From: Nitrospira sp. CR1.3
Lineage (GTDB): Bacteria; Nitrospirota; Nitrospiria; Nitrospirales; Nitrospiraceae
DNA length: 64,000 nt
Reading direction: 5' to 3'
NCBI GenBank assembly: GCA_014055525.1
Contig: WIAH01000011.1
Location: 1 to 64,000 of the forward strand
Shown here one piece after another: positions 17,897-54,110 of the stretch. The translations under genes and the position numbers were made by a program. Under the pieces are notes generated by a model. The model had not been told where the DNA came from. It saw nothing but the letters and a program-made list of their open reading frames with translations, and did no database searches. Position 1 is the first letter of the stretch. Every line of letters begins with the position of its first letter.

Positions 17897-19420
17897 TTGT
17901 CGATGAAATTACGACTCGACCTGAAGCTGAGCCAAAAGCTCATCATGACGCCGCAATTGCAGCAGGCAATCAAGCTGTTGCAACTGTCTCGACTGGAGCT
18001 GCAGCAAAGTTTGGCTCAACATTTGATGGACAATCCACTCCTGGACGAAGTGCCTTCCGAGGCTGAAGACAACGAAGCAGGAACGACCGATGAACAGGCA
18101 GAGGAATCCGCTGCTTCGGCGTCGACGAACACCGAGGCGTCCGATAAGGAGGAAACGACTCCTGAAGAGCGCGATACACCCGAAGAAGCGTCGGCAGCGG
18201 GATGGGAGGAATACTTCGACACCGATCGACGGACTGGTGGTGGGGAGCGCCAATCCTCGTCGGCGGAGGAGTTTCCCTCGTACGAACAGACGGTGGCGAA
18301 GGCCACGTCGCTTGAGGATCATTTGCTCTGGCAGCTCTCCTTGTCCGGTTTGTCAGAACGGCAGAAAGCGATCGGTCGACTCCTGATCGGCAATCTCGAT
18401 GACGACGGGTATCTGCGAATGCCCCTGGCGGAAATTGTCAGCGGGACCGAATTCACGGAAGCGGAGGTTGAGTCCGTTCTGCGGGACATCCAGACTTTTG
18501 ATCCGACCGGAGTCGGTGCTCGAGACCTTCCCGAATGTCTCCTCTTACAGCTCGGGCATCTGGGAAAAAGCGCAATCGGATCGTTGGGCGCTCGTCCAGG
18601 CGCTTTGAGAGGATCGATTGTCGAAGCAATCGTTCAGCATCATCTCAAGGACCTTGAGAAGAAACAGTATGCCCGCGTCGCCAAGGCTCTTGATGTGACG
18701 GTGGAGGAAGTGTTGCAGGCCACCAAGGTAATCGAAGCGCTTGAGCCGAAACCGGGGCGCCCTTTTGCCAACACGCAGAATTATGTGATCGTGCCGGATG
18801 TCTTCGTCGTGAAGAATGAAGGGGAGTGGGTGGTTCTGCTGAATGATGACGGGTTGCCTCGCATGCGCATCAGTCCCTATTACAAGCAACTCATGTCCTC
18901 GGGCCAAGGCGGGTCATCCGAAACGAAGGCCTATCTCGATGAGAGGCTTCGCGCGGCACAATGGGTCATTCGCAGCATCGAGCAGCGCAATAAAACCATC
19001 GTGAAGGTCGTCTCGAGCATCGTCAAATTCCAGGAACAATTTTTTGAGCGCGGCGTCGAATATCTGAAACCTCTGGTGCTGAAGCAGGTGGCTGAGGACA
19101 TCGGCATGCACGAGTCCACCATCAGCCGGGTGACGGCCAACAAATACATGTATTGTCCGCAAGGGATGTTGGAACTCAAGTTTTTCTTCAACGCCGGTCT
19201 CCAGAGGGCGGATCAGCCGAGTGACATGCTCTCTTCCGTGACGGTCAGAGAAATGATTCGAAAAATGGTTGCTGCGGAAGATGCCCGTCATCCGTTGAAG
19301 GACGAAGAGATCGCCGCACGCCTTCGAGATCAACAGGTGTTGATCGCCAGGCGGACGGTCGCGAAATATCGGGCCGAGGAGAACATTCCGCCGGCGACCC
19401 AGCGCAAACAATTTTTCTAG
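17897..19420 (+). CDS. rpoN: RNA polymerase sigma-54 factor RpoN
   Basis: 507 residues. Region I is Gln/Leu-rich (LKLSQKLIMTPQLQQAIKLLQLSRLELQQ) and acidic region II follows (about residues 50-110). The core-binding and DNA-binding domains come next, and the RpoN box ARRTVAKYR sits near the C terminus. Sigma-54 directs activator-dependent transcription, often of nitrogen genes. TTG at 17897 is chosen because AAGGAG ends 8 bases upstream; ATG at 17903 is 14 bases away. I found no clear -24/-12 element in the window. Confidence 0.96.
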   Translation: MSMKLRLDLKLSQKLIMTPQLQQAIKLLQLSRLELQQSLAQHLMDNPLLDEVPSEAEDNEAGTTDEQAEESAASASTNTEASDKEETTPEERDTPEEASAAGWEEYFDTDRRTGGGERQSSSAEEFPSYEQTVAKATSLEDHLLWQLSLSGLSERQKAIGRLLIGNLDDDGYLRMPLAEIVSGTEFTEAEVESVLRDIQTFDPTGVGARDLPECLLLQLGHLGKSAIGSLGARPGALRGSIVEAIVQHHLKDLEKKQYARVAKALDVTVEEVLQATKVIEALEPKPGRPFANTQNYVIVPDVFVVKNEGEWVVLLNDDGLPRMRISPYYKQLMSSGQGGSSETKAYLDERLRAAQWVIRSIEQRNKTIVKVVSSIVKFQEQFFERGVEYLKPLVLKQVAEDIGMHESTISRVTANKYMYCPQGMLELKFFFNAGLQRADQPSDMLSSVTVREMIRKMVAAEDARHPLKDEEIAARLRDQQVLIARRTVAKYRAEENIPPATQRKQFF

Positions 19421-27600: not shown

Positions 27601-28866
27601 ATGGCAACGACGCGCCCCTTATCACCGGCACAACTCGAGCAGGCATTGCGGGAGAAATCCCGGGAAGTCGACGTGTTGCACCGGATTACCGATTCCATCA
27701 GCAACACGCTCGATCTTGAAGCTGTCCTCAGGCACATTGTTGAGGTCGTGGTGGAGGTGACAAAGGCGGACGCCTGTCTCCTCTATCTGCTTTCCGACAG
27801 GCGAGACGAACTGATCCTCCGTGCGTCAAAAAATCCCCATCCCAAACTCATCGGGCGCATCACCATCGGAATGGGAGAGGGGATCACAGGATGGGTGGCG
27901 CGAGAACAAACACGAGTCGTCATTCCGAGTAATGCCAGCGATGATCCCCGGTTCAAATTTTTTCATAATTTGCCGGAAGATCGCCACCAGGCCTTCGTTT
28001 CCGTGCCGATCATGGCCAAGAAGGAAGTGGTCGGCGTCATTAATGTCCAGCATAAGCGGCCTAAGCGGTATCGTTCAGATGAGCTGACCTTACTCTCCAC
28101 GATCGCCAGTCAGGTGGGTGGAGCCATCGAGAATGCGAGGCTTTATGAGCAAATGCGGCGCAAAGCCGTGCAGGTCGAAACGCTCTCCCAGGTTTCCGAG
28201 ACAGTTGCGTCCAATCGCCTGATTGAAGATGTGCTTCAACTCCTGGTGACGATGACCGCGCAAATGATGAACTCGAAAATCTGCTCGATCATGCTGTTGG
28301 ACGGGGCGACCGGAGATCTTCGGATCGAGGCCACCCAGAGCTTGAGCGAGCTGTATCGCCGCAAGCCGAATTTGAAAGTGGGTCAGAGCATCAGCGGACG
28401 CGCGGTCCAGGAGCGCCGGCCGATCATTGTGGCGGATGTGACGAAGGAAGCGGACTACATGTATCCGGAAATGGCGAAGAAAGAAGGTTTGTGTTCCCTC
28501 CTCTGCGTCCCGATGATGGTTCGGGAGAAGGCCGTGGGAGTCATCAATAGCTACACATCTGCGCCCTATTCGTTTACGAACGAGGAAGTAAGGTTGTTGC
28601 AGGTCATCGCAAACCAGGCGGCGATCGCCATCGAACATACGACTTTGCTTGAAAAGTCATTCGAAATGCAGGAAGCGCTGGCGGTCAGAAAGCTGCTGGA
28701 GAGGGCCAAAGGCTATCTGATGCGCTCGAAGAAATTGACCGAGGAGGAAGCATTCAGGCTCATTCAGCGGCAAAGCATGGACCTGCGAAAATCGATGCGT
28801 GAAATTGCCGAGGCTGTCTTGTTGGCAGGGGAACTTGAGGAGCGGGCGGAAAAACAACGAGGCTAA
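27601..28866 (+). CDS. GAF-GAF-ANTAR RNA-binding antiterminator
   Basis: 421 residues. Two GAF sensor domains (about 25-185, with VPIMAKKEVVGVINVQHK, and about 205-350, with VPMMVREKAVGVINSYT) are followed by an ANTAR helical domain (about 355-412: LLERAKGYLMRSKKLTEEEA, then FRLIQRQSMDLRKSMREIAEAVL). ANTAR domains of NasR and EutV bind tandem hexaloop hairpins in nascent leaders and prevent termination. Four such leaders occur in this window, before urea, ammonium and cyanate/nitrate genes, so this protein is the obvious candidate trans-factor. That link is inference. What the GAF domains bind is unknown; no receiver or NIT domain is present. It lies in an apparent operon with aroB, without a strong ribosome-binding site. 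Confidence 0.9.
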   Translation: MATTRPLSPAQLEQALREKSREVDVLHRITDSISNTLDLEAVLRHIVEVVVEVTKADACLLYLLSDRRDELILRASKNPHPKLIGRITIGMGEGITGWVAREQTRVVIPSNASDDPRFKFFHNLPEDRHQAFVSVPIMAKKEVVGVINVQHKRPKRYRSDELTLLSTIASQVGGAIENARLYEQMRRKAVQVETLSQVSETVASNRLIEDVLQLLVTMTAQMMNSKICSIMLLDGATGDLRIEATQSLSELYRRKPNLKVGQSISGRAVQERRPIIVADVTKEADYMYPEMAKKEGLCSLLCVPMMVREKAVGVINSYTSAPYSFTNEEVRLLQVIANQAAIAIEHTTLLEKSFEMQEALAVRKLLERAKGYLMRSKKLTEEEAFRLIQRQSMDLRKSMREIAEAVLLAGELEERAEKQRG

Positions 28867-30026: not shown

Positions 30027-30056
30027 TTGACAATGAATAGGCAATGGTCCTATAAG
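30027..30056 (+). promoter_or_regulatory. Sigma-70 promoter for the porin-urt leader
   Basis: TTGACA (30027-30032) and TATAAG (30051-30056) are spaced 18 bases apart. Transcription would start near 30062, about 17 bases before the first hairpin of the ANTAR-type leader. Confidence 0.7.
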
Positions 30057-30078
30057 CGTGCCACATCGTGCCGCCCGA

Positions 30079-30144
30079 CGAGAGGGACAACGAGGTCCCG
30101 ATCGAAGGCACGAGCTATTTCGAGAGGACAATGGCGTCCTTTTG
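30079..30144 (+). promoter_or_regulatory. ANTAR-target leader, tandem hexaloop hairpins (porin-urt)
   Basis: P1: stem GGGAC (30084-30088) with GTCCC (30095-30099) closes the loop AACGAG. Beyond a tandem G-A mismatch it extends by CGA/TCG (30079-30081 with 30102-30104). P2: stem AGGAC (30125-30129) with GTCCT (30136-30140) closes the loop AATGGC, extendable to 9 bp with wobbles (30121-30144). Both loops have A at position 1 and G at position 4, as in known ANTAR targets. The 3' arm of P2 is also the 5' arm of the terminator, so the two folds exclude each other. Confidence 0.8.
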
Positions 30145-30177
30145 GTCCATCAAGTGGGCCGGGAGGGCGTTTTTTTT
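30135..30177 (+). terminator. Intrinsic terminator in the porin-urt leader
   Basis: A 14-bp uninterrupted stem (30135-30148 with 30156-30169, several G-U pairs) with a 7-base loop is followed by eight T residues (30170-30177). It lies about 60 bases before the porin start codon. It overlaps P2 and so should form when the hexaloop hairpins are not stabilised. Confidence 0.85.
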
Positions 30178-30239: not shown

Positions 30240-31682
30240 ATGAGATGCGGGTTGAACAATTTGGCCTTCGCCATTGTCTTTATGTCGCTCGCGACCATAC
30301 TCGCGACCGAGGTGCCGGTTCTTGCTCAAGTTCCGGAAAAGCCTGCGGGAGAAGAGACTGGTGGCGGCAGAGAGACACGGAAAATGGAAGACGTGGAACC
30401 GGCCGTTAATCTCTGCGCAGGTTGTGTCGCGCCGATTTTTACCAAGGGAAGCAAGGGAGCGATTACGCCGTACGGGCGCATCGAATTAGATGGTATCTAC
30501 AGCACCAGGAACACGAACCCGTTGGATCCGCAGCAATTCAACGGCTACGGAACTGCGGCCGGCCGTCAGGGCAACAGCAGCAGCACGCTGAATCCACGCT
30601 ATAGCGTCTTCGGCCTCCGCGCCGATAGAACAGACGGGCAGAGCACGCTCGCCGGCGTCGTCGAGGTGGACTTCTACGGACAGTCTGACACCGGCAATAA
30701 CCTGTTGCCCCGTCTGCGTCTCGCCTACATGAAATATTCTCCTAACAACGGGAAGACGTCGTTTACGATCGGACAGGACTGGAACCCGATCATGTCGTTG
30801 CTGAGTGACAACATCGACTTCTCCATCATGGGTTACACCGGCAATCTCTGGCAACGTATTCCACAGATCACCCTGCGGCAGAAGTTCTCAGAAAACATCG
30901 AGGGGCTCATCACCGTCATGCGATTCGAGCGCGGGTTGTCGAACTGTTGCGGCAACAACCAAGTGCGCCCGACGCCCGCTGAAGGAGCCAATGGAGGCGG
31001 GCCCGGCAGCACCCAATCGTTTAACGACCCGGTCCAGATGCCCTATTTCGGGAGCAGACTCGCATACAACGGAACCGGGAACATGGCGGGCACCATGGTT
31101 GCGGCTAACCTCGCCTATCGTTGGTATCGGTCGGCACCGACTCTTAACGCAGCCGGAGGAGCGGGACCCACAAGCGCTGCTTTTACCTCCGGCAAGGACA
31201 TCAATTCCTACCTGGTCGGGATCGAAGCGGTGCATCAACTGACCAAACAATTGAAATTCATGGGAGAGTTGGCCTATGGGCAGGCTCTCGGGAACGAATG
31301 GTTCCGGTGGAATCAAGATCTGAACTGGCTGACAGGCAGTCCAGTGCGGACGACCACCGCCTGGTTCCAACTCAGCTATGCGCATTCCAGAGACTACACC
31401 TTCTTGTTTGGCTATGGTATCGACAATCCCCTCGACCGGGATTTGAAAGGCAGTATCAATGCCTATGGCACAACGCCTGGCTCGGCTGGCTATAACTCCA
31501 GCATCCAATATCTTTCCAATCAACGAACATATCTCACGGCGATTCATCCTGTATGGGCGGACATGATGATGGGCTTCGAGTGGCAACACTTCTGGACAAA
31601 CTGGGCGCAGCCGACCACCTATTTCGCAAAGGCATCGAATCAGGCCGATATGTTTACGCTGTCCGCCTGGTATAACTTCTAG
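30240..31682 (+). CDS. Outer-membrane porin upstream of urtA
   Basis: 480 residues. A signal peptide (LAFAIVFMSLATILATEVPVLAQ) and a short periplasmic linker are followed by a beta-barrel with alternating aromatic strands, starting GAITPYGRIELDGIYSTRN and ending FTLSAWYNF with the C-terminal Phe typical of barrel assembly. It resembles the DcaP-like porin group. Its place at the head of urtABCDE suggests urea or amide passage across the outer membrane, which is inference. The ATG at 30240 has AGGAGGA 9 bases upstream. Confidence 0.85.
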   Translation: MRCGLNNLAFAIVFMSLATILATEVPVLAQVPEKPAGEETGGGRETRKMEDVEPAVNLCAGCVAPIFTKGSKGAITPYGRIELDGIYSTRNTNPLDPQQFNGYGTAAGRQGNSSSTLNPRYSVFGLRADRTDGQSTLAGVVEVDFYGQSDTGNNLLPRLRLAYMKYSPNNGKTSFTIGQDWNPIMSLLSDNIDFSIMGYTGNLWQRIPQITLRQKFSENIEGLITVMRFERGLSNCCGNNQVRPTPAEGANGGGPGSTQSFNDPVQMPYFGSRLAYNGTGNMAGTMVAANLAYRWYRSAPTLNAAGGAGPTSAAFTSGKDINSYLVGIEAVHQLTKQLKFMGELAYGQALGNEWFRWNQDLNWLTGSPVRTTTAWFQLSYAHSRDYTFLFGYGIDNPLDRDLKGSINAYGTTPGSAGYNSSIQYLSNQRTYLTAIHPVWADMMMGFEWQHFWTNWAQPTTYFAKASNQADMFTLSAWYNF

Positions 31683-31740: not shown

Positions 31741-33102
31741 ATGAGCGAGATCACAAAGAACAATGACGAGAACAGAGTGCCGGAGAGGCCCGAACAGGGA
31801 TCTTCGCGGCGGGAGTTCCTAGTTCAAAGCTCGAAGGCTGCAGCCGGCGTGGGCATCGCCGCGTTGCTCGGCAATTTGGGCAATTGGGCCTTGTCTTATG
31901 CGGCCGACAAGGAGCCGATCAAGATCGGAGTGCTCCATTCGCTAAGCGGTACGATGGCAATCAGCGAAGTGTCGCTGCGAGATACCGTTCTCATGGCGGT
32001 GGAAGAAATCAACGCGAAGGGCGGCGTGCTGGGTCGACAGGTCAAACCGGTGGTGGTTGATCCCGCCTCCAATTGGGACCTCTTCGCGGAAAAGGCCAAG
32101 CAGCTCTTATTGCAGGACAAAGTGGCAGTGGTGTTCGGTTGCTGGACCTCCGTCAGCAGGAAATCCGTCCTCCCGGTCTTTGAAAAGAACAACGGCTTGC
32201 TCTTCTACCCGGTTCAGTACGAGGGCGAAGAATGTTCCCACAACGTGTTCTACACCGGCGCTGCGGTCAACCAACAGGCGGTGCCGGCGGTGGAATATCT
32301 CATGAGCAAGGAGGGCGGGGGTTATAAAAAGTTCTATTTATTGGGCACGGACTACGTGTATCCGCGGACGACGAATAAGATCCTGCGGGCTATGCTGTTG
32401 GCGAAGAAGGTGCCGGAGGCCAATATCATGGAGGAGTACACTCCCTTCCATCATCAGGATTATCAGACCATCGTCGGCAAGATCAAAAAGTTCGCGGCAG
32501 GCGGAGGAGCGGCGGTGATCAGTACGATCAACGGCGACAGCAACGTGCCGTTCTACAAGGAATTCGCGAATCAGGGATTGCGCGCTGAAGATGCTCCTAT
32601 CATGGCCTTCAGCGTGGCGGAAGACGAATTGCGAGGCATGGATACCTCGGCGCTCGTCGGCCACTTGGCGGCCTGGAACTACTATCAGAGCGTCGATACG
32701 CCCCAGAACAAGCAATTCGTCGCGAATTTCAAAGCCTATTGCAAACGGAACAATTTGCCGGACGGCGACAAACGAGTAACGGACGATCCGATCGAGGCGG
32801 CGTATTTTGGAGTCCATGTCTGGAAACAGGCGGTCGAAAAGGCGGGTTCAATCGAAGTGGACAAGGTGCGAAAAGCCGTCTATGGTCAAAAATTCCTTGC
32901 GCCTGGCGGTGAAATCATGATGGATACTGGCAACCATCATACGCACAAGCCGGTGCTCATCGGTGAGATTTTGAAGGACGGGCAATTCAAAGTTGTCTCG
33001 CGCTCCAAAGGATTGGTGAAGCCGGAGCCCTGGAGCGAATATACGAGCCCCGACAAGGGTTGTGACTGGATCAGCCATCAGGGCACCTATCAGAAAAAGT
33101 AG
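31741..33102 (+). CDS. urtA: Urea ABC transporter substrate-binding protein UrtA
   Basis: 453 residues. A Tat signal (SRREFLVQSSKAAAGVGIAALLG) is followed by a periplasmic-binding fold of the branched-chain amino acid type (IKIGVLHSLSGTMAISEVSLRD, FYPVQYEGEECSHNVFYTGA). The wording is characteristic of UrtA rather than LivJ. It captures urea in the periplasm. It is separated from urtB by a strong hairpin that could raise its level above the membrane parts. Confidence 0.95.
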   Translation: MSEITKNNDENRVPERPEQGSSRREFLVQSSKAAAGVGIAALLGNLGNWALSYAADKEPIKIGVLHSLSGTMAISEVSLRDTVLMAVEEINAKGGVLGRQVKPVVVDPASNWDLFAEKAKQLLLQDKVAVVFGCWTSVSRKSVLPVFEKNNGLLFYPVQYEGEECSHNVFYTGAAVNQQAVPAVEYLMSKEGGGYKKFYLLGTDYVYPRTTNKILRAMLLAKKVPEANIMEEYTPFHHQDYQTIVGKIKKFAAGGGAAVISTINGDSNVPFYKEFANQGLRAEDAPIMAFSVAEDELRGMDTSALVGHLAAWNYYQSVDTPQNKQFVANFKAYCKRNNLPDGDKRVTDDPIEAAYFGVHVWKQAVEKAGSIEVDKVRKAVYGQKFLAPGGEIMMDTGNHHTHKPVLIGEILKDGQFKVVSRSKGLVKPEPWSEYTSPDKGCDWISHQGTYQKK

Positions 33103-33158
33103 CGGGCGCGCAGTCGCAAAACCTGCGAACCCAATAGGCGAAAAAGGATAAGGGATAT

Positions 33159-33204
33159 AAGCGGGTGACGTGACGGAATGTCCACGTCACCCGTTTGTCT
33201 TGTT
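33159..33204 (+). terminator. Hairpin between urtA and urtB, probable partial terminator
   Basis: A perfect 11-bp stem CGGGTGACGTG / CACGTCACCCG, extendable to 14 bp (33159-33172 with 33183-33196), encloses a 10-base loop and is followed by TTTGTCTTGTT. It probably reduces read-through so that the binding protein is made in excess. Confidence 0.6.
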
Positions 33205-33221
33205 CTGGAGTTGTCGCAATC

Positions 33222-34766
33222 GTGAAGAAATCCTGCCGGTTCCTCCTGCTTCTCCTGGGCCTCCTTCACCCCGTCAATGATTGCGCCATTGCCGAGGAAC
33301 CACAGGCATCTGTCTCCACCGGCGCATCGGTTGAGCGGGCGCTCGCGCAACTCACGAGTGAAGATGAAGCGATGCGAGAAGCGGCGCTCCGCACCATCAT
33401 TGAGCAGGGCGATGTCAACCTGATTCCACGCCTGGATGAAATACGTGCCAATGCGGACCGCTCGATCAGGCAGGTCATCAAGCCGGTGATGGACTTGCTG
33501 AAAAATCGAGCCAATCTCGAAAGTCCCAAGAACGATGTCCGGCGCTCCGCCGCGACGGATCTCGGCACCTCGGGAAAACAAGTGGCCGTGCCGTGGCTCG
33601 AACGGGCCGCCGGGAAGGAAACAAACAAGTGGGTGCGCTACACAATGGAGGAATCTGCAGCGCTGCTCAAGCTGGCAACGGACGACCCATCGACAAAACT
33701 CGCGGCGGCAGAAAAACTGGCTGAACTCTCGAGCCAGAACGGAGTGCCGGCTCTGAGAGAACTGGTCAAAGCCGGAGAATCGCCCGATGCCACGGATGTC
33801 CAACAGGGCCTGGCGAAAGCCGCCGCTTCCGCCATTGAGCGCATTGAAACCTGGGCGGCCTGGTCGAACGCCATCGAGACGATTTTTCGCGGCATCAGCC
33901 TTAGTTCGATTCTTCTGATCATGTCCGTCGGTCTCGCGATCGTCTTCGGGCTCATGGGCGTGATCAACATGGCCCATGGGGAACTGATGATGGTCGGAGC
34001 CTATGGAACGTTCGTGACGCAGGAGCTGTTCAAGACGTTTCTTCCGGCCCCCATGTTCGACTACTATTTCGCGTTCGCCATGCCGGTCGCATTTCTGCTG
34101 GCGGCAGGCTGCGGATTCCTGCTCGAAGCCACCGTCATTCGTTTTCTGTACGGGCGCCCGTTGGAAACGATGCTGGCTACCTGGGGTGTGAGTCTGGTCC
34201 TCATGCAGGCGGCGCGGGTCTATTTCGGCGACCTCACCGCGGTCGTGGCACCGGCATGGCTGAGCGGCGGGCAGCAAGCCATGGTCGGCGTATATCTGCC
34301 GAACAACCGGCTTTTTGTCATCGCCCTTTCCGTGTTCTGCGTGCTGGCCATTTACGCCATCCTCTTCCGGTCCAGCCTCGGATTACGCGTCCGCGCAGTG
34401 ACGCAGAATCGTAATATGAGCGCCTGCCTTGGTATTCCGACCAGAAGGGTGGATGCCTATACCTTCGCCTTCGGTTCCGGCCTGGCAGGGATCGCGGGTT
34501 GGGCGCTTACGCTCATCGGCAACGTAGAGCCGGGTCTCGGCCAGAACTACATCGTCGATTCGTTCATGGTGGTGGTCACCGGTGGCGTCGGGAAGCTGGC
34601 CGGGACCATTGTGGCGTCCCTAGGCATCGGGGGACTGAATAAGCTGCTTGAACCGAGTCTCGGGGCTGTCTACGGCAAAGTCTGTATCCTGGTCCTGGTC
34701 ATTTTATTCCTGCAGTGGCGTCCCTCAGGATTATTCGCGATCAAAGGACGCCACGCCGACTCCTAA
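33222..34766 (+). CDS. urtB: Urea ABC transporter permease UrtB
   Basis: 514 residues. A signal sequence and a periplasmic helical-repeat domain (about 30-210, HEAT-like) precede the LivH-type permease domain (about 230-510, with VGLAIVFGLMGVINMAHGELMMVGAY). This long N-terminal region is normal for UrtB. GTG start, with GGAG 11 bases upstream. Partner of UrtC. Confidence 0.93.
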   Translation: MKKSCRFLLLLLGLLHPVNDCAIAEEPQASVSTGASVERALAQLTSEDEAMREAALRTIIEQGDVNLIPRLDEIRANADRSIRQVIKPVMDLLKNRANLESPKNDVRRSAATDLGTSGKQVAVPWLERAAGKETNKWVRYTMEESAALLKLATDDPSTKLAAAEKLAELSSQNGVPALRELVKAGESPDATDVQQGLAKAAASAIERIETWAAWSNAIETIFRGISLSSILLIMSVGLAIVFGLMGVINMAHGELMMVGAYGTFVTQELFKTFLPAPMFDYYFAFAMPVAFLLAAGCGFLLEATVIRFLYGRPLETMLATWGVSLVLMQAARVYFGDLTAVVAPAWLSGGQQAMVGVYLPNNRLFVIALSVFCVLAIYAILFRSSLGLRVRAVTQNRNMSACLGIPTRRVDAYTFAFGSGLAGIAGWALTLIGNVEPGLGQNYIVDSFMVVVTGGVGKLAGTIVASLGIGGLNKLLEPSLGAVYGKVCILVLVILFLQWRPSGLFAIKGRHADS

Positions 34767-34767
34767 T

Positions 34768-34890
34768 CGGTTGCTGAAAATGGCCTCAAGCTTCGTTCTC
34801 AGTCGTTCGTGCGCCTCAACGTACAAGGTAAAGCACGCCTCGGCGCCCGAACTCCTTGCGGCCTTGCTTGATAACCATTTTGAGCAATCG
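34768..34890 (-). repeat. Dispersed palindromic element, copy 1 (inverted)
   Basis: A 123-bp element fills the urtB-urtC gap. Its ends (34768-34783 and 34875-34890) are inverted repeats pairing at 14 of 16 positions. Its interior strings GCCTCAACGTAC, AGCACGCCTCG and TGCGGCCT match, in reverse orientation, the element before cynS (57470-57593). From memory, related sequences are scattered through Nitrospira intergenic regions; I could not check this. Confidence 0.65.
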
Positions 34891-34910
34891 CAGTAAACAC
34901 GCTCGAACCC

Positions 34911-36050
34911 ATGACTGAGAATCACGACATCCAGCCGCACGCACAGCGCGACGTAGGGTTGGCCTTTTGGGTCACGGGCTTTGTCTTGTTGATTCTGATG
35001 CCGCTGTTGAATGTCATACCGCCTGAGGATTCGTGGCTGCATCTCTCCGACTTTTCGCTGAATCGCTTCGGGAAGTTTTTGGCCTTCGCGATATTGGCGA
35101 TCGGCCTTGATCTGATTTGGGGGTATACCGGCATCCTGAGTTTGGGACAGGGCGTTTTTTTCGGGCTCGGCGCCTACTGCATGGGCATGCACCTCATGCT
35201 CACGATCGGGAAAGAGAGTGTCTATGGAAGCGAACTGCCGGACTTCATGGTCTGGAACCAGGTGAAAGAGCTGCCGTTTTTTTGGAAGCCGTTCTACAGT
35301 TTTCCTCTTGCGCTGTTCGGGGCCATCCTCGTGCCGACCCTGTTCGCCCTTGTGTTCGGGTTTCTCGCCTTCCGTAGCCGGATCAAGGGCGTGTACTTCG
35401 CCATCATCACCCAAGCGCTTGCGCTGGTCGCATGGCTGGTCTTCAACCGTAACGAAACGAATCTCGGCGGCACCAATGGATTGACCGACTTCAAGCAGCT
35501 CCTTGGGTTTCGGCTTTCTGAGCCCGGCACGCAAAGGGCATTGTACGTTGTAACCGTCCTCTGTCTCGGCGGCGCCTATCTGCTTTGCCGGTGGATTATC
35601 CGTTCGCGCGCCGGAAAGGTCCTCATCGCCGTTCGCGACAGTGAGCAACGCGTGGTGTTCTCCGGTTATACGCCGGCGAACTACAAATTGTTCGTGTTCG
35701 TGACGGCCGCCGCTCTGGCAGGCCTCGCCGGCATGCTCTATGTGCCGCAAGTCGGCATCATTACTCCGGCGCAGATCGGCGTATTGCCTTCCTTAGAAAT
35801 GGTGATTTGGGTGGCGGTCGGAGGCCGGGGGACACTGGCGGGCGCAGTGTTGGGAGCCGTCAGCGTCAATCTCGGGCGGAGCGTGCTCACGAATTACTTT
35901 CCGGAACTCTGGCCGTTCATTCTGGGCGGGCTCTTTGTGGCGGTCGTACTCCTGTTTCCGGACGGGCTGATCGGAATCCTGCGCAATCTGAAAGAGCAGG
36001 TCCGCGTCCGCAAGCCCGTCGTCGTCGCCGAGGGGGAGACGTTGACGTGA
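34911..36050 (+). CDS. urtC: Urea ABC transporter permease UrtC
   Basis: 379 residues, LivM-type permease. About nine to ten hydrophobic segments and the conserved ILAIGLDLIWGYTGILSLGQGVFFGLGAY motif, plus the EAA-like loop SEQRVVFSGYTPANYKLFVF. It forms the channel with UrtB. Its stop overlaps the urtD GTG. Confidence 0.94.
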   Translation: MTENHDIQPHAQRDVGLAFWVTGFVLLILMPLLNVIPPEDSWLHLSDFSLNRFGKFLAFAILAIGLDLIWGYTGILSLGQGVFFGLGAYCMGMHLMLTIGKESVYGSELPDFMVWNQVKELPFFWKPFYSFPLALFGAILVPTLFALVFGFLAFRSRIKGVYFAIITQALALVAWLVFNRNETNLGGTNGLTDFKQLLGFRLSEPGTQRALYVVTVLCLGGAYLLCRWIIRSRAGKVLIAVRDSEQRVVFSGYTPANYKLFVFVTAAALAGLAGMLYVPQVGIITPAQIGVLPSLEMVIWVAVGGRGTLAGAVLGAVSVNLGRSVLTNYFPELWPFILGGLFVAVVLLFPDGLIGILRNLKEQVRVRKPVVVAEGETLT

Positions 36051-36814
36051 GCGAACGTGGGTCCATCATCTATCTCGAAGGCGTGACCGTCGACTATGAC
36101 GGATTCAAGGCGCTGAACAATTTGAATTTCATCGTAAATTACAACGAGCTGCGCGTCGTAATCGGCCCGAACGGCGCCGGAAAGACCACGCTCCTGGATG
36201 TGATTTGCGGGAAGACCAAGCCGGCGTCCGGCCGGGTGATTTTCGGCAAAGATACCGAGTTGATCGGCAAACGGGAGGACGAAATCGTTAAGCTCGGCAT
36301 AGGGAGAAAATTTCAAGCCCCCTCCATTTATGCCAACCTGACGGTCTGGGAAAATCTCGATCTCTCGGTAAAGCGGGTCAGTAAAGGCGTGCTTCACACG
36401 ATGCTGAAAACGTCCACACATGAAGAGCAGGCCAGGATCGGCGAAACGCTGGAGGTAATCGGCCTCAAGGACTACGCGCCGACCAGGGCCGGTTCGTTGT
36501 CGCACGGACAGAAACAGTGGCTCGAGATCGGCATGGTGATTCTCCAAGATCCGTCCCTGCTCCTGGTCGACGAACCGGTTGCAGGCATGACCGACAGAGA
36601 GACGGAGCAGACCGGTATCCTCTTGCAATCGTTGGCCGCAAAGCACGCCATCGTCGTGATCGAGCACGATATGGAGTTCGTGCGGCAGATCGCCCGGATT
36701 GTGACGGTCCTGCATGAAGGGACGGTCATTTGTGAAGGACCGGTCGAGAAAGTACAGGCCGACGCCAGAGTGCGAGAAATCTATTTGGGAAGACAGAAAG
36801 TCGCGCACGCGTAA
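36047..36814 (+). CDS. urtD: Urea ABC transporter ATPase UrtD
   Basis: 255 residues. Walker A GPNGAGKTT, signature LSHGQKQWLEIGMV (the SHGQ variant typical of UrtD), Walker B LLLVDEPVAGM and switch His in VIEHDMEFV. LivG-like. Start: GTG at 36047, overlapping the urtC stop (GTGA), with AGGGGGAG about 8 bases upstream. The longer open frame upstream has no family resemblance. Confidence 0.94.
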   Translation: MSERGSIIYLEGVTVDYDGFKALNNLNFIVNYNELRVVIGPNGAGKTTLLDVICGKTKPASGRVIFGKDTELIGKREDEIVKLGIGRKFQAPSIYANLTVWENLDLSVKRVSKGVLHTMLKTSTHEEQARIGETLEVIGLKDYAPTRAGSLSHGQKQWLEIGMVILQDPSLLLVDEPVAGMTDRETEQTGILLQSLAAKHAIVVIEHDMEFVRQIARIVTVLHEGTVICEGPVEKVQADARVREIYLGRQKVAHA

Positions 36815-36817
36815 CGC

Positions 36818-36919
36818 GTATCTCGTGAAGCGCGAAATCAAAGTGGTACTTTGGAGAAAAGCTAGTGTGACGGGAATTCATTGTTAGCGAGACACGAGAT
36901 ACCAACGACGAGTAACGAG
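36818..36919 (+). repeat. Palindromic intergenic element between urtD and urtE
   Basis: A perfect 10-base inverted repeat (GTATCTCGTG at 36818-36827, CACGAGATAC at 36893-36902) spans the gap. Its right end, 36887-36919, is a run of CGAG units matching 24 of 33 positions with 44453-44485, just before ureG. Confidence 0.5.
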
Positions 36920-36924
36920 TATTG

Positions 36925-37635
36925 ATGCTGGAACTGAACAACATCAATGCCTACTATGGAGAAAGCCATATTCTCCGGAATGTGTCGTTCACCGTGGAGC
37001 CGGGCGAAGTGGCATGCTTGATGGGACGTAACGGCGTGGGCAAGACCACCACCCTCAAGGCGATTACAGGACTGCTCGCGGTCCGATCCGGAAAAATAAT
37101 GTTCGACGGATCGGACGTGACAAAGCTGTCCACAGATCGACGAGCCCGTCGCGGGTTGGCCTATGTTCCTCAGGGGCGCGAGATCATTCCGCACTTGACC
37201 GTCCGTGAAAATTTGCAGCTCGGATTCTGGGCCAGGCCGGCTACGGCGGGCAGCGCCGTTGAAAAAGACGCGTTCGATGAAGTCTATCAGCTCTTTCCGA
37301 AGTTGACGCAGATTCTCGATCGTCCCGGCGGTGTGCTGAGCGGCGGCGAACAGCAGCAGCTCGCGATCGGGCGAGCGCTGCTCTCAAATCCGAAGCTGCT
37401 TCTTCTCGATGAACCGACGGAAGGCATCCAGCCCTCTATCGTCGATCACATTGAAGACGTGATCATCCGATTCAAGAACTCCCGGCGGTTCGCCATACTG
37501 CTGGTCGAGCAGGGGCTCCACTTTGCGGCGCGGTTGGCGGAGAAGTATGTGGTGATGGCCAAGGGGGCGGTGGTGGCGGCTGGCAAGAGCGATGAGCTAA
37601 ATGCCGAAATGGTGAGACAGCATTTGACGGTGTAA
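36925..37635 (+). CDS. urtE: Urea ABC transporter ATPase UrtE
   Basis: 236 residues, LivF-like. MLELNNINAYYGESHIL, Walker A GRNGVGKTT, the YVPQGREIIPHLTVREN segment, signature LSGGEQQQLAIGRAL, Walker B LLLDEPTEGIQP. It pairs with UrtD. ATG at 36925 chosen; a TTG lies one codon earlier. Last urt gene. Confidence 0.94.
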   Translation: MLELNNINAYYGESHILRNVSFTVEPGEVACLMGRNGVGKTTTLKAITGLLAVRSGKIMFDGSDVTKLSTDRRARRGLAYVPQGREIIPHLTVRENLQLGFWARPATAGSAVEKDAFDEVYQLFPKLTQILDRPGGVLSGGEQQQLAIGRALLSNPKLLLLDEPTEGIQPSIVDHIEDVIIRFKNSRRFAILLVEQGLHFAARLAEKYVVMAKGAVVAAGKSDELNAEMVRQHLTV

Positions 37636-38526: not shown

Positions 38527-39804
38527 ATGATACAAGCCCTTGTTCGAACCGTCACCTTCGGAATTGCCCTGGCGCTGTGTGGCTTTCCAGGTTTCGCCTT
38601 CGATGCCTTTGCCGAAGACCCCTCGGATGCACCGGTTGATCAACTGGAACATATTTCTCTGAGGCTGAAGCAAGCCGAGCAATCCATCGAACGGAAGCTC
38701 CTATGGGAGAAGCTGCGGCTCCACTTCTACGGATATCTCGACGGCTCCTATACGCAGAACTTCAACAACCCGTCCAATCGAATCAATCAACTGCGGATCT
38801 TTGACGTCAATTCCAACGAGTTGCGACCGAATCTCGCGCAGTTTGTATTGGGAAGAGAGGCGAAAGCGGATGGTGATTGGACAGACCGCACGGGATTCAA
38901 GGTGAAATTTAACGCCGGCCGCGATTCAGACTTCATCGGCGGCGTGAATCTCAGTACTTGGGCGGACTTCCAGGAATTCTTCGTGCAGTACATCGCGCCG
39001 GTCGGAACGGGATTGAAGCTGCAAGTTGGACAGAGCAACGGCCTTGTCGGATACGAAGTGGTGGAAAGCCCGTACAACGCGAACTATTCACGATCCTGGC
39101 TGTTTGGATTGGGGCAACCGTTCACCACGAGGGGATTCCGCGCAAGCTATGATTTCACTGACCAGCTTTCCTGGTCAGTGGGCGTCATTAATCACATCAA
39201 CAGCAATTTGTCGGACAATCGGGGAGACCCCTGGATTGAATCGGCCCTGACGGTAGCCTACTCCGAGAAGTTCAAGTTGACGCTCTATGGATTAGTCGGG
39301 TCCGGTTTGAACGCGGTTCCGGTCGGTTGGGGGAGTCTGCTGCTCGGGGGCGGCTACTTCTCCATTCAAGCGACCGAGCGGGCGTCCTTCGTCCTGGAAT
39401 CCTATTATGCCAACCAGATCAATAGCAGTACGATCAGTCAGGCGAAGAACGCGCGGTGGGACGGCGTGGCAGGCTATTTCATCTACGACCTGACGAAGCA
39501 GTGGGGCGTTCGCATCCGCGGGGAGATTTTCGAGGATCCCGGTGGATTTGCCTCCTGCGGCGGAACGACTGCCTATCAACCGAGGGCGAACGTGTGTTTC
39601 GGCGCGACTTCGACCAGTCCGGCATCACCGGTGGGCCAGACGCTGTGGGAGGTCACGTCCACCCTCCAGTACAAGCCGATCAGCTCTCTGATGACTCGCC
39701 TGGAATATCGCTATGACAAGTCCAACCAGAATGTCTTCCAGGTCGGAGGACGATCGACCAGTTACCAACCGACCCTCTCGTTCGAAGTGATCTATTTCTT
39801 CTGA
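38527..39804 (+). CDS. Predicted outer-membrane beta-barrel porin
   Basis: 425 residues. A signal peptide is followed by a short helix (about 35-60, HISLRLKQAEQSIERKLLWE) and many alternating beta-strands ending FEVIYFF, a standard barrel-assembly C terminus. It resembles BBP2/porin-2-type outer-membrane proteins. Substrate unknown; its position between urt and the urea channel suggests a nitrogen compound. The last 13 bases overlap the convergent channel gene. Confidence 0.8.
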   Translation: MIQALVRTVTFGIALALCGFPGFAFDAFAEDPSDAPVDQLEHISLRLKQAEQSIERKLLWEKLRLHFYGYLDGSYTQNFNNPSNRINQLRIFDVNSNELRPNLAQFVLGREAKADGDWTDRTGFKVKFNAGRDSDFIGGVNLSTWADFQEFFVQYIAPVGTGLKLQVGQSNGLVGYEVVESPYNANYSRSWLFGLGQPFTTRGFRASYDFTDQLSWSVGVINHINSNLSDNRGDPWIESALTVAYSEKFKLTLYGLVGSGLNAVPVGWGSLLLGGGYFSIQATERASFVLESYYANQINSSTISQAKNARWDGVAGYFIYDLTKQWGVRIRGEIFEDPGGFASCGGTTAYQPRANVCFGATSTSPASPVGQTLWEVTSTLQYKPISSLMTRLEYRYDKSNQNVFQVGGRSTSYQPTLSFEVIYFF

Positions 39805-40841
39805 GCCGCTCGATATCGCGCCAGATTGTCTTCCGGCGTCGTGGCATCGGCCGGCGCGACCAGGATCAGCGAAGGAAATCCGTTTCTGGCGAGAAGCATC
39901 AACCATGTGACGAAGACGAATGCGGATGTGAGAACCGGCATTCCGGACGGTTCCAGGAAAATGCCGAGTGAGGCCCACACTCTGGCGGATACGATCACGC
40001 CGATCACCGTGTAGATAAAACCTGGAATGTTCAACACCAGGAACGTGCCGCCGAGGGCCATCGCGGTCAGAGCGGCATTGTACCCGAATAGGCCGTCACG
40101 GATTGTGGCATCATGGGCTCCGTAGAGTACTGCGACACCCACTGCAAGCGTGGACCCGATGAGGGCCATCAGAGCGCCGATCCTGGTATTGACCGCGATC
40201 CCCATCAGAATGACAATTCCGGTCACCCAATTGTCCTGGAAAAAAATCTCCCCGATTCCCATGGTAATGCCGTGGAACCAGGTGATCCAGGTGTACTCCG
40301 GTCTCGGGCCCGAGAAATCCGAAGGCGAAGTCGGCTTGAGCGCGTTGGACACATCGATCGTAGAGAATTGCAGCAATGCTCCGAGAAAGAACCAGGTCGC
40401 CAAAACGAACGGCATGGTGAGGCCGGGAACCTTGTGCGGGCCGAACAGGGCGCCAAACGCCGGCATTGTCACTGTCGTGAAAGCGGCGGAGAGGACGATA
40501 TAGAGCCAGAGGTGCCAGTTTGGCATGTTTCCGGTCGTAAAGTTCTGGCTGGTGTAGGCCACCAGGGCGATGGCGATCAAGGCGCCGTTAAAACCGAAGA
40601 GCCCATCCTTGATCATGCCCTTGTCGGCTCTGAAGAACAGAGCGGTCACTGTGCTGACGATCGTACCGAACAGACAGACTGTGCCGTAAATCCAGGAATT
40701 GTAGAAAATCCCGGCCAGAATCACGGCTCCGGAGACCGGATTATTCTGAAAGACCACCTGGCCGATTCCGCGCAAGACCCAGTCGACGAATCCAAATGTG
40801 GGATGGTCTCGAAACTGATCTTGGAAAGCGGCGGGCGCCAC
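39792..40841 (-). CDS. Urea channel / urea transporter (UT family)
   Basis: 349 residues with about ten membrane helices in two repeats. Each half has a QVVFQNNPVSGAVILAGIF or EIFFQDNWVTGIVILMGIA motif, plus GLTMPFVLATW or PVLTSAFVFVTW, the selectivity-filter helices of UT/Yut proteins. It conducts urea passively across the inner membrane, complementing high-affinity UrtABCDE. GTG start with AAGGAGG 5 bases upstream. Divergent from ureA. Confidence 0.9.
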   Translation of the reverse strand: MAPAAFQDQFRDHPTFGFVDWVLRGIGQVVFQNNPVSGAVILAGIFYNSWIYGTVCLFGTIVSTVTALFFRADKGMIKDGLFGFNGALIAIALVAYTSQNFTTGNMPNWHLWLYIVLSAAFTTVTMPAFGALFGPHKVPGLTMPFVLATWFFLGALLQFSTIDVSNALKPTSPSDFSGPRPEYTWITWFHGITMGIGEIFFQDNWVTGIVILMGIAVNTRIGALMALIGSTLAVGVAVLYGAHDATIRDGLFGYNAALTAMALGGTFLVLNIPGFIYTVIGVIVSARVWASLGIFLEPSGMPVLTSAFVFVTWLMLLARNGFPSLILVAPADATTPEDNLARYRAAQKK

Positions 40842-41839: not shown

Positions 41840-43563
41840 AGATTCCCCGAAAACAGTATGCGGATCTCTTTGGCCCGACGGTTGGCGACCGCGTTCGATT
41901 GGCTGATACGGATCTGTTGATCGAAATCGAAAAGGACTTTACGTCCTACGGGGATGAAGCCGTATTCGGTGGCGGGAAGGTCCTTCGCGACGGAATGGGT
42001 CAATCGTCCCGAGCCACGAACCGCGAAAGGGCGCTGGACACGGTCATCACCAATGCCCTGATTCTGGATTACTGGGGAATCGTCAAAGCGGATATTGGGA
42101 TCAAGGACGGGCGCATCGTCGGCATCGGCAAGGCAGGCAATCCCGATACGATGCCGAACGTCTCCCCTGGCATGGAGTGCGGAGCGGGAACGGAAGCGAT
42201 CTCAGCCGAAGGCTGTATCCTGACGGCAGGGGCGCTCGAAACGCACGTCCATTTTATTTGCCCGCAGCAATGCTGGGAAGCGCTTTCAGCAGGCATCACC
42301 ACGATGATCGGAGGAGGGACCGGGCCTGCCACCGGGACGAATGCGGTTACGTCAACGCCCGGTCCGTGGAACATCCATCGGATGCTCGAGGCGGCTGAAG
42401 GCATTCCGATGAATCTCGGATTCACCGGCAAGGGTAATTGCTCGTTACCCGATGCGTTGAACGAGCAGATCGAAGCCGGAGCGTTGGGGTTAAAGGTGCA
42501 TGAAGATTGGGGCTCGACGCCGGCCGCAATCGATAGCGCCTTGAGCGTCGCCGAACGGTACGATGTGCAGGTTGCGTTACACACGGACACCTTGAACGAA
42601 GCCGGTTTTGTCGAGGACACCGTCAAGGCCTTTAAGGGCCGGACGATCCACTCCTACCATACAGAAGGCGCCGGCGGAGGGCATGCGCCGGACATCATCA
42701 AGCTGTGCGGAGAGCCGAATGTGCTGCCCTCGTCGACCAATCCGACGATGCCGTTCACGGTGAACACGCTGGATGAGCATCTGGATATGCTGATCGTGTG
42801 TCACCACCTCAACAAGCGCGTTCCGGAGGATGTGGCCTTCGCCGAATCGCGCATTCGGCGGGAAACCATCGCCGCTGAGGATGTCCTGCACGACATGGGT
42901 GCGATCAGCATGATGTCCTCCGACACGCAGGCGATGGGGCGCATCGGAGAACTCATCATCAGGACCTGGCAGACCGCCCACAAGATGAAAGTGCAGCGAG
43001 GCCATTTGACGGAGCGCGGCATCCAATCCGGGAAGGGGCAGAACGACAACTTCCGCGCAAAGCGGTATGTGGCGAAGTACACGATCAATCCGGCGCTCTC
43101 CCATGGAGTTGCGCATGAGGTTGGCTCGATTGAAGTGGGGAAGGTGGCAGATCTGGTGATCTGGAAGCCCGCATTCTTCGGCATCAAGCCTGAGATGGTG
43201 TTGAAAAGCGGATTTATTGCCCAGGCGCAGATGGGCGATCCCAATGCCTCGATCCCGACGCCCGAGCCGATCATCAGCAGGCCGATGTTCGGGTCGTTCG
43301 GACGCGCGATCGCCAGCACCAGCCTCACCTTCATGTCGAAGGTCGCTCTGGAGCGAGACGTGCCGAAGAAACTCGGACTCGAACGTCGCGTGGCGGCGGT
43401 CAAGAATTGCCGCACGGTGAAGAAACGCGACCTCAAACTCAACGATGCACTTCCCAAGATCGAGGTCGATCCTGAAACCTATGTGGTCACCGCCGACGGT
43501 GTGCGTCTGACGTGCGAGCCGATCGTCGTGCAGCCGATGGCGCAGCGGTATTTTCTTTTTTAG
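41836..43563 (+). CDS. ureC: Urease alpha subunit (catalytic)
   Basis: 575 residues. All catalytic features are visible: HVH nickel ligands in [11 protein letters not shown], the carbamylated Lys and His in [10 protein letters not shown], His in [10 protein letters not shown] and [16 protein letters not shown], the flap Cys-His in [19 protein letters not shown], and Asp in [11 protein letters not shown]. It hydrolyses urea to ammonia and carbamate. GTG start inside the ureB stop. Confidence 0.98.
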
Positions 43564-46226: not shown

Positions 46227-48002
46227 ATGCGAACCTTTCGCATTGCCATGGTCCAGATGAACCCCACCGTCGGAAACCTGGACGGCAACGTCCGGCAGAT
46301 CATCGGCTGGCTGCGCGAGGCACGCAAGGCCAAGCCGGATCTCGTCGCATTTCCTGAACTGGCGATAACAGGTTACCCGCCGGAAGATCTTCTCTTGAAG
46401 CCGCAGTTCGTCGAAGACAACAGGCGCGCTCTCAACGAGGTCGCTCGCGCCTGCCGGGATCTGGTGGCGGTCGTCGGCTATGTGGGCCATGGAAGTATGC
46501 CGGAGCAGAAAGAAGCACAGTCCTCCGTCGTGCCGGCCGGCCGGCATGAATTGTATAACGCCGCTGCCGTCATCGCCGGAGGTCGGCTCGTGACGACCTA
46601 CGCAAAATGGTATCTGCCCAATTATGGCGTCTTCGATGAAAGCCGCTACTTTCACCCAGGGCGTCGCCTCCCGCTGGTGACGGTGAACGGTACAGTCGTG
46701 GCTGTGAACATCTGCGAAGATATCTGGCTACCCGAGGGTCCCACCCGCCGGCAGGCCGCGGCCGGGGCGGAGATCATCGTCAACATCAACGCCTCGCCGT
46801 TCCACGTCGGGAAAAGCCGCTCGCGGGAGCAGATGCTGGCGACCCGCGCGAGGGACAATCGAGTGATCGTGACCTATACCAATACCGTCGGCGGGCAGGA
46901 CGAACTGGTGTTCGACGGTCATAGCGTGATCCTGGACCATACCGGTGATCTCATCGCGCGGGCCAAGGGATTCGAAGAGGACCTGTTGGTGGCCGACCTG
47001 AACGTCGAATCGGTGACGAGGGCGAGGGTGGCGCAGGCAAGAAAACCGGGGGTGGCCGGAAAGACCGCGGCCTCAGTCGATCGGTTCGCGCTGAAAGCCC
47101 GGCCTTCGCAGAAACGCGTCCGCATCGTTCCCGCGAGCGGATCACTCGCCGATCCCTTGGATGAAGTGTATCAGGCGCTCACGTTGGGTGTGCGTGACTA
47201 CGTCAGGAAGAACTGGTTCAAACGGGTCGTGATCGGGCTCAGCGGCGGCATCGACTCTGCTTTGACGGCTGTCATTGCGGTGGATGCGCTGGGAGCGGAC
47301 AACGTCCTGGGCGTGTTCATGCCGTCGCCGTACACGTCGCGTGAAAGCCGCGACGATACGCGCGAACTGGTTCGCCGGCTCGGTATTCAGATGAAGTCCA
47401 TGCCGATCACTCCGGCGTTCAAGTCCTATCTCGCCACGCTCCGGGAGGTGTTCCAAGGCGCGAAAGTGGATACGACGGAAGAGAATCTGCAGGCCCGCAT
47501 CCGCGGGAATCTGTTGATGGCCTTGTCGAACAAATTCGGCCACCTGGTCCTGACGACCGGCAACAAGAGCGAAATGAGCGTCGGCTATGCCACCTTGTAC
47601 GGTGATATGGCAGGCGGCTTTGCCGTCATCAAGGATGTGCCGAAGACCATGGTCTATGCATTGGCGCAACGACGGAATCGGCAAGGGGAGAGCGCGGTGA
47701 TTCCCAAACGGATACTCGATCGCCCGCCGACGGCTGAACTCCGGCCGGACCAAAAAGACGAGGACAGTCTCCCGCCCTATGCAGTGCTCGATCCGATCTT
47801 GAAGGCCTATGTCGAGGACGACCGCTCTGTGGATGAAATGGTCGGAATGGGATTTGACCGGAAGACCGTACTACGGGTTGTCGCGCTCGTCGATCGCAGT
47901 GAGTATAAACGACGTCAGGCTCCTGTTGGCATCAAGATCACGCATCGGGGGTTGGGCAAGGATCGTCGGATGCCGATCACCAACGGGTATCGCGGCGTAT
48001 AG
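46227..48002 (+). CDS. nadE: Glutamine-dependent NAD(+) synthetase
   Basis: 591 residues. The N-terminal nitrilase-type glutaminase has its Glu-Lys-Cys triad in FPELAITGYPPED, AKWYLPNYGVFDE and NICEDIW. The C-terminal synthetase has the PP-loop GLSGGIDSALTAVIA. It converts nicotinate adenine dinucleotide to NAD using glutamine nitrogen. It heads an operon with amt, PII, glnD and glnA, so its expression is tied to nitrogen status through the ANTAR-type leader. The start fits the family N terminus (IAMVQMNPTVGNLDGN). Confidence 0.95.
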   Translation: MRTFRIAMVQMNPTVGNLDGNVRQIIGWLREARKAKPDLVAFPELAITGYPPEDLLLKPQFVEDNRRALNEVARACRDLVAVVGYVGHGSMPEQKEAQSSVVPAGRHELYNAAAVIAGGRLVTTYAKWYLPNYGVFDESRYFHPGRRLPLVTVNGTVVAVNICEDIWLPEGPTRRQAAAGAEIIVNINASPFHVGKSRSREQMLATRARDNRVIVTYTNTVGGQDELVFDGHSVILDHTGDLIARAKGFEEDLLVADLNVESVTRARVAQARKPGVAGKTAASVDRFALKARPSQKRVRIVPASGSLADPLDEVYQALTLGVRDYVRKNWFKRVVIGLSGGIDSALTAVIAVDALGADNVLGVFMPSPYTSRESRDDTRELVRRLGIQMKSMPITPAFKSYLATLREVFQGAKVDTTEENLQARIRGNLLMALSNKFGHLVLTTGNKSEMSVGYATLYGDMAGGFAVIKDVPKTMVYALAQRRNRQGESAVIPKRILDRPPTAELRPDQKDEDSLPPYAVLDPILKAYVEDDRSVDEMVGMGFDRKTVLRVVALVDRSEYKRRQAPVGIKITHRGLGKDRRMPITNGYRGV

Positions 48003-53873: not shown

Positions 53874-53888
53874 TGGCGCCGTGAGTTG

Positions 53889-53947
53889 GTTCAGGCAACG
53901 GCGCCTGAACGAAGCTTGCTCATAAGGCAACGGACAAAGGCGTCCGT
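53889..53947 (+). promoter_or_regulatory. ANTAR-target leader, tandem hexaloop hairpins (transporter-cynS)
   Basis: P1: a perfect 8-bp stem GTTCAGGC (53889-53896) with GCCTGAAC (53903-53910) closes the loop AACGGC. P2: stem ACGGAC (53930-53935) with GTCCGT (53942-53947) closes the loop AAAGGC. The linker is about 20 bases. Loop plus 3' arm of P2 form the 5' arm of the terminator. Confidence 0.85.
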
Positions 53948-53983
53948 CATTCACTCAAGAATGGCGGACGCCTTTTGGCTTTT
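53936..53983 (+). terminator. Intrinsic terminator in the transporter leader
   Basis: A 17-bp stem (53936-53952 with 53959-53975, one G-T) with the loop ACTCAA is followed by TTGGCTTTT. It overlaps P2 completely on its 5' side. Confidence 0.85.
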
Positions 53984-54034
53984 CAGGGGGCAGAAGGCCG
54001 CGTAGTTGCCTCGTCATCATCTATACATAATCAT

Positions 54035-54110
54035 GCGGGTCGCTGAAGACCTGCGGCGGTCGGACAAAGGCGTCCTTCTCTCGGTCAGGGAGAGGGACGT
54101 TTGTTGTTTG
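54035..54110 (+). promoter_or_regulatory. Second, degenerate ANTAR-type element
   Basis: A 7-bp hairpin (GCGGGTC 54035-54041 with GACCTGC 54048-54054) has the hexaloop GCTGAA: G4 is kept but position 1 is G. Seven bases on, GGAC / GTCC (54062-54065, 54072-54075) closes AAAGGC exactly as in the first element. A bulged terminator-like stem (54064-54104) follows, with a weak TTGTTTG tail. It looks like a decayed or divergent duplicate of the upstream element. Confidence 0.55.

What the first reader, a model, noticed from the sequence alone, without database searches (positions are those of the whole stretch)
30027..30177. Complete promoter, tandem hexaloop and terminator leader before porin-urtABCDE
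A good promoter, P1 with an extra tandem G-A mismatch extension, P2 of up to 9 bp, and a 14-bp terminator with eight T residues follow in order within 150 bases. Each base of the P2 3' arm is reused in the terminator. Urea import would thus be switched by an RNA-binding protein rather than, or besides, NtrC-type control.
Basis: seen in the sequence. Interest (0 to 1): 0.75.

Follow-up and report, generated by a model that had tools for sequence, protein, structure and literature searches.

The report
ANTAR antitermination leader before urea-uptake operon
This stretch is an RNA switch of a known kind: two small hairpins that an ANTAR-type protein, encoded 1.2 kb upstream, should clasp so that RNA polymerase runs past a terminator and makes the urea importer; it is one of at least four such switches before nitrogen genes in this Nitrospira genome.

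Summary
At 30027-30177 there is a TTGACA/TATAAG promoter, two hairpins with A1/G4 hexaloops and C-G closing pairs (P1, P2), and a 15-bp terminator plus T8 whose 5' arm reuses the whole P2 3' arm. The pattern is not chance: a blind descriptor finds three such arrays in the window and none in 100 shuffles. Thirty-three leaders covary. All 30 urt-type leaders keep TTGACA.

It is an ANTAR dual-hexaloop antitermination leader. The genome encodes one ANTAR protein, a GAF-GAF-ANTAR at 27601-28866. A covariance model finds only five leaders genome-wide. All lie in this window: before porin-urtABCDE, nadE-amtB-glnK-glnD-glnA, the cyanate/nitrate-type ABC operon (a strong and a weak one) and amtB. In 175 family genomes, 103 of 104 with ANTAR have a leader, against 9 of 71 without. 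Eleven sampled relatives without ANTAR keep urtA but no leader upstream.

The mechanism is known, and urea-transporter targets were already reported (Ramesh 2012). What appears new is the Nitrospira regulon, its one-component GAF-GAF regulator and a long P1-P2 spacing. Binding, termination and the signal remain untested.

The parts
30027..30056 (+). sigma-70 type promoter TTGACA-N18-TATAAG
   Evidence: sequence; TTGACA with a TATA-like -10 at 17-18 nt in nearly all 30 urt-type leaders of relatives
30066..30113 (+). extended P1 arm: outer helix 30066-30072/30107-30113, CGA/TCG plus tandem G-A, GGGAC/GTCCC topped by hexaloop AACGAG (A1, G4) at 30089-30094
   Evidence: P1 pairs covary; loop A1 and G4 invariant in 33/33. 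Outer helix is a folding prediction, kept in two close relatives
30120..30145 (+). P2 hairpin, 10 bp, hexaloop AATGGC (A1, G4) at 30130-30135
   Evidence: conserved by DNA in 48/175 family genomes
30135..30177 (+). intrinsic terminator, 15 bp (30135-30149/30155-30169) plus T8, overlapping the P2 3' arm
27601..28866 (+). GAF-GAF-ANTAR protein, the only ANTAR protein of the genome; proposed antiterminator
30240..31682 (+). outer-membrane porin-like protein, first gene after the leader
31741..37635 (+). urtABCDE urea ABC transporter
   Evidence: UrtA passes TIGR03407
46084..46222 (+). second leader of the same kind, before nadE-amtB-glnK-glnD-glnA
53880..53981 (+). third leader, after glnA and before the cyanate/nitrate-type ABC transporter genes and cynS; short T-run
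53991..54108 (+). weak leader-like element with a good P2 hairpin around 54062-54075 but no standard P1
   Evidence: 23.6 bits
58131..58236 (+). leader before a second ammonium transporter

Best explanation
The stretch is an ANTAR-responsive transcription-attenuation leader. Transcription starts near 30063 from a housekeeping promoter. P1 and then P2 fold as they emerge. If nothing holds P2, the P2 3' arm switches into the longer terminator and polymerase stops at about 30170-30177, giving a short RNA of about 110 nt. When the GAF-GAF-ANTAR protein is in its active state, presumably under nitrogen limitation sensed by its GAF domains, its ANTAR dimer grips the A1/G4 hexaloops, keeps P2 folded and lets polymerase read into porin-urtABCDE. 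The same protein acts on the related leaders before nadE-amtB-glnK-glnD-glnA, the cyanate/nitrate-type operon and amtB. Shown here: anatomy, conservation, covariation, gene context and co-occurrence. Inferred: protein binding, termination, antitermination and the identity of the signal.
For: Two A1/G4 hexaloops with C-G closing pairs, the EutV and NasR recognition rule (PMC3369931, PMC7496416); A1 and G4 of P1 are invariant in 33/33 leaders although P1 was not used to collect them. Covariation: P1+P2 19 cells changed on both sides, 0/500 shuffles as high; extended P1+terminator 46 cells, 0/500. Truncated RNA folds as P1+P2, full RNA as P1+terminator. One ANTAR protein in the genome; by alignment to EutV (numbering of PMC8934654) it keeps R142, K149, E160, an aromatic at 164 (F), M172 and R175. 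Family-wide: ANTAR and leader both present 103, ANTAR only 1, leader only 9, neither 62. Eleven sampled ANTAR-less relatives keep urtA and have no leader. Fetched leaders mostly lie before urt, nadE/amtB/glnK, porin-amtB or cyanase-like genes.
Against: P1-P2 spacing is longer than allowed in eut: 20-25 nt from the P1 core to P2 here, loop-to-loop 33-49 nt across leaders, whereas a 14-nt linker or +20 nt abolished EutV action (PMC3369931, PMC8934654). An outer P1 helix would shorten the unpaired linker to about 4-6 nt but is only predicted. EutV R168, N173 and R177 are Q, D and S here. Nine genomes have a leader without a detected ANTAR gene, seven of them under 90% complete. In about 25 ANTAR-bearing genomes no leader was listed just before urtA (that listing was cut off).
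Confidence: 0.93

Rival explanations
1. The hairpins and terminator are a simple constitutive attenuator, or the terminator of an upstream unit, without a protein regulator.
For: Terminator and promoter alone would work so; no binding data exist.
Against: Hexaloop A1/G4 invariant; leader and ANTAR gene co-occur at 103/1/9/62; the same two-hairpin element stands before several nitrogen operons; its own promoter lies between it and the neighbouring gene, which runs on the other strand.
Confidence: 0.03
2. urt is controlled mainly at initiation by an NtrC-type sigma-54 activator and the leader is secondary.
For: An rpoN-like gene is in the window (17897-19420) and many sigma-54 activators exist in the genome.
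Against: No good sigma-54 site at the promoter; loose matches in the window do not exceed chance. Conserved TTGACA promoter in 30/30 urt-type leaders. No protein above the NtrC cut-off.
Confidence: 0.03
3. The leader is a ligand-binding riboswitch whose hairpins only resemble ANTAR sites.
For: The extended P1 arm with tandem G-A mismatches could look like a small aptamer.
Against: No Rfam family near threshold; P1 arm sequence varies freely except the hexaloop and top pairs; ANTAR co-occurrence.
Confidence: 0.01

Closest known systems
EutV-responsive eut leaders of Enterococcus faecalis (PMC3369931, PMC8934654)
   Same: Two consecutive A1/G4 hexaloop hairpins; P2 overlaps the terminator 5' arm; antitermination logic; multiple leaders form a regulon
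   Different: Regulator here is one-component GAF-GAF-ANTAR, not a phosphorylated REC-ANTAR; P1-P2 spacing longer; target is urea import, not ethanolamine
NasR / nasF leader of Klebsiella (PMC7496416)
   Same: One-component sensor-ANTAR protein controlling a nitrogen operon through two hairpins with C-G closing pairs and A1/G4 loops, before an intrinsic terminator
   Different: NIT domain senses nitrate/nitrite; here two GAF domains with unknown ligand, GAF1 nearest to PtsP and NifA GAFs; several target operons
ANTAR leaders predicted before urea transporters and other nitrogen genes (Ramesh et al. 2012, PMC3369931)
   Same: Same element class and gene theme, including urea transporters, ammonium transporters and P-II
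   Different: Main text does not mention Nitrospira or Nitrospirota; supplementary tables could not be read here

Membership tests
ANTAR dual-hexaloop antitermination leader | Two consecutive stem-loops with hexaloops having A at 1 and G at 4 | tested here: met
   AACGAG and AATGGC; A1/G4 invariant in 33 leaders for P1
ANTAR dual-hexaloop antitermination leader | C-G closing pair under each hexaloop | tested here: met
   P1 32/33, P2 33/33
ANTAR dual-hexaloop antitermination leader | P2 overlaps an intrinsic terminator so the two exclude each other | tested here: met
ANTAR dual-hexaloop antitermination leader | Genome encodes an ANTAR protein | tested here: met
   one, 1.2 kb upstream; co-occurrence 103/1/9/62
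ANTAR dual-hexaloop antitermination leader | Short linker between P1 and P2 (5-12 nt in eut) | tested here: inconclusive
   20-25 nt from the P1 core; about 4-6 nt if the predicted outer helix forms
ANTAR dual-hexaloop antitermination leader | Protein binds the hairpins and lifts termination | not testable with these tools
   needs in vitro transcription and binding assays
ANTAR domain protein (PF03861) | Score above gathering cut-off and RNA-contacting residues kept | tested here: met
   69.2 bits against 27.3; R142, K149, E160, aromatic 164, M172, R175 kept by alignment to EutV 6wsh; R168, N173, R177 not
NtrC / sigma-54 controlled operon | -24/-12 sigma-54 promoter upstream | tested here: not met
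   only a 2-mismatch match on the opposite strand at 30048-30063; window count at chance level

The most novel reading that the evidence does not exclude
A single GAF-GAF-ANTAR antiterminator is the main nitrogen-status regulator of many Nitrospira and their order, acting on RNA for urea, ammonium, glutamine/NAD synthesis and cyanate operons in place of NtrC. The conserved 33-49 nt loop-to-loop spacing with an extended P1 arm would mean a different engagement geometry from EutV.
Probability: 0.35. Interest if true: 0.65.

Novelty: new member of a known kind. Interest (0 to 1): 0.48.

Why it matters
Nitrospira are leading nitrite oxidisers and include comammox bacteria, yet little is known about how they control nitrogen uptake (my own knowledge; the held library gave no relevant paper linking ANTAR to Nitrospira). 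A one-protein, RNA-level regulon gives a direct, testable model for when these organisms import and split urea. It also offers a GAF-ANTAR protein matched to its RNA targets; Ramesh et al. noted that none had been characterised by 2012.

Tried and rejected
Rfam: no family near threshold at the leader; best sub-threshold hits are chance. Sigma-54 control: no good site at the promoter; no NtrC above cut-off. Simple promoter scanner: missed the promoter because of its fixed rule; conservation used instead. Pattern GGACANNGNNGTCC in the whole genome gives 17 matches against 13 for the reversed control pattern, so the hexaloop hairpin alone proves nothing; the tandem arrangement with terminator is what is specific. 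A phylogeny of leader/ANTAR co-loss was not built; the Fisher value ignores relatedness.

Full report
What is there. In order: TTGACA 30027-30032, TATAAG 30051-30056, P1 core 30084-30099 with loop AACGAG, P2 30120-30145 with loop AATGGC, terminator 30135-30169 and T8 30170-30177. P2 is 10 bp and the terminator 15 bp. The P2 3' arm lies wholly inside the terminator 5' arm. The tandem G-A and CGA/TCG extension of P1 are present, and folding adds an outer helix 30066-30072/30107-30113. RNA cut before the terminator 3' arm folds as P1+P2; the full leader folds as P1+terminator, z = -4.91.

Chance. A descriptor written from the ANTAR rule alone finds three arrays in the 64-kb window and none in 100 dinucleotide-preserving shuffles.

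Conservation. The leader DNA is found in 48 of 175 genomes of the family. Aligned with three other leaders of the window, 33 leaders show paired changes far above shuffles and above slid controls, for P1+P2 and for extended P1+terminator. A1 and G4 of the P1 loop are invariant although P1 was not used to collect the sequences. All 30 urt-type leaders have TTGACA, nearly all with a TATA-like -10 element 17-18 nt downstream. The exact P2-terminator core occurs in 22 stretches among about 85,000 species genomes; all carry Nitrospira or Nitrospirota names except one labelled Nitrosospira sp. isolate NOB2.

The regulator. The genome has one ANTAR domain, in a GAF-GAF-ANTAR protein at 27601-28866. 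Aligned to EutV (PDB 6wsh; residue roles from PMC8934654) it keeps R142, K149, E160, an aromatic at 164, M172 and R175. Its first GAF domain is close to PtsP and NifA GAF domains. That suggests, but does not show, sensing of nitrogen status.

The regulon. A covariance model finds five elements in the 3.46-Mb genome, all in this window and on this strand: before porin-urtABCDE (91 bits), nadE-amtB-glnK-glnD-glnA (70), a second amtB (53), the ABC operon ahead of cynS (47), and a weak one just after that (24). Three of these, besides the target itself, were in the training alignment; the blind descriptor found two of the three independently. In other genera most fetched leaders stand before porin-urt, nadE, porin-amtB or cyanase-like genes.

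Co-occurrence. Of 175 family genomes 103 have both ANTAR and leader, 1 ANTAR only, 9 leader only, 62 neither. In the largest genus it is 14, 0, 3, 62. urtA is kept in many genomes that lack ANTAR. In eleven sampled ones no leader is found in about 3 kb upstream, while the neighbouring lipoprotein-like gene is still there in most. Relatedness was not corrected for. Similar leaders also occur in a second family of the same order.

Mechanism. This is the ANTAR antitermination scheme established for EutV and NasR (PMC3369931, PMC8934654, PMC7496416). Everything up to co-occurrence is shown by sequence; binding, termination and the signal are inferred. One departure deserves a test: spacing between the hairpins is longer than eut tolerates, unless the outer P1 helix forms and shortens the free linker.

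Novelty. Ramesh et al. already reported ANTAR elements before urea transporters, ammonium transporters and P-II genes in other bacteria. The finding is therefore a new member of a known kind, with a coherent and apparently undescribed Nitrospira regulon around it (only open-licence papers were searchable).

Noticed in passing
41983-42280 (-): Rfam 5_ureB_sRNA (RF02514) matches antisense to ureC at 84.7 bits; probably reflects conserved urease coding sequence rather than an sRNA.
   Followed up: no
53991-54108: A second leader-like element directly after the strong one, with a good P2 but a P1-like hairpin whose loop (GCTGAA) breaks the A1 rule; tandem or decaying leader.
   Followed up: partly
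39792-40841 (-): A Yut-type urea transporter gene on the opposite strand between urt and ure (265.7 bits against a cut-off of 274.6), so two kinds of urea importer sit together.
   Followed up: no
L118, L122, L127: Some relatives have two consecutive leaders about 1.1-1.2 kb apart before porin-urt; what lies between was not identified.
   Followed up: no
L148 (G070), L149 (G062): Leaders in genomes with no detected ANTAR gene; G070 is 99% complete, so either the gene was missed or the leader is an orphan.
   Followed up: no
46227-48002: NAD synthetase (glutamine-dependent type) heads the amtB-glnK-glnD-glnA unit and is kept behind the leader in several genera, an unusual link between NAD synthesis and nitrogen control.
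   Followed up: partly
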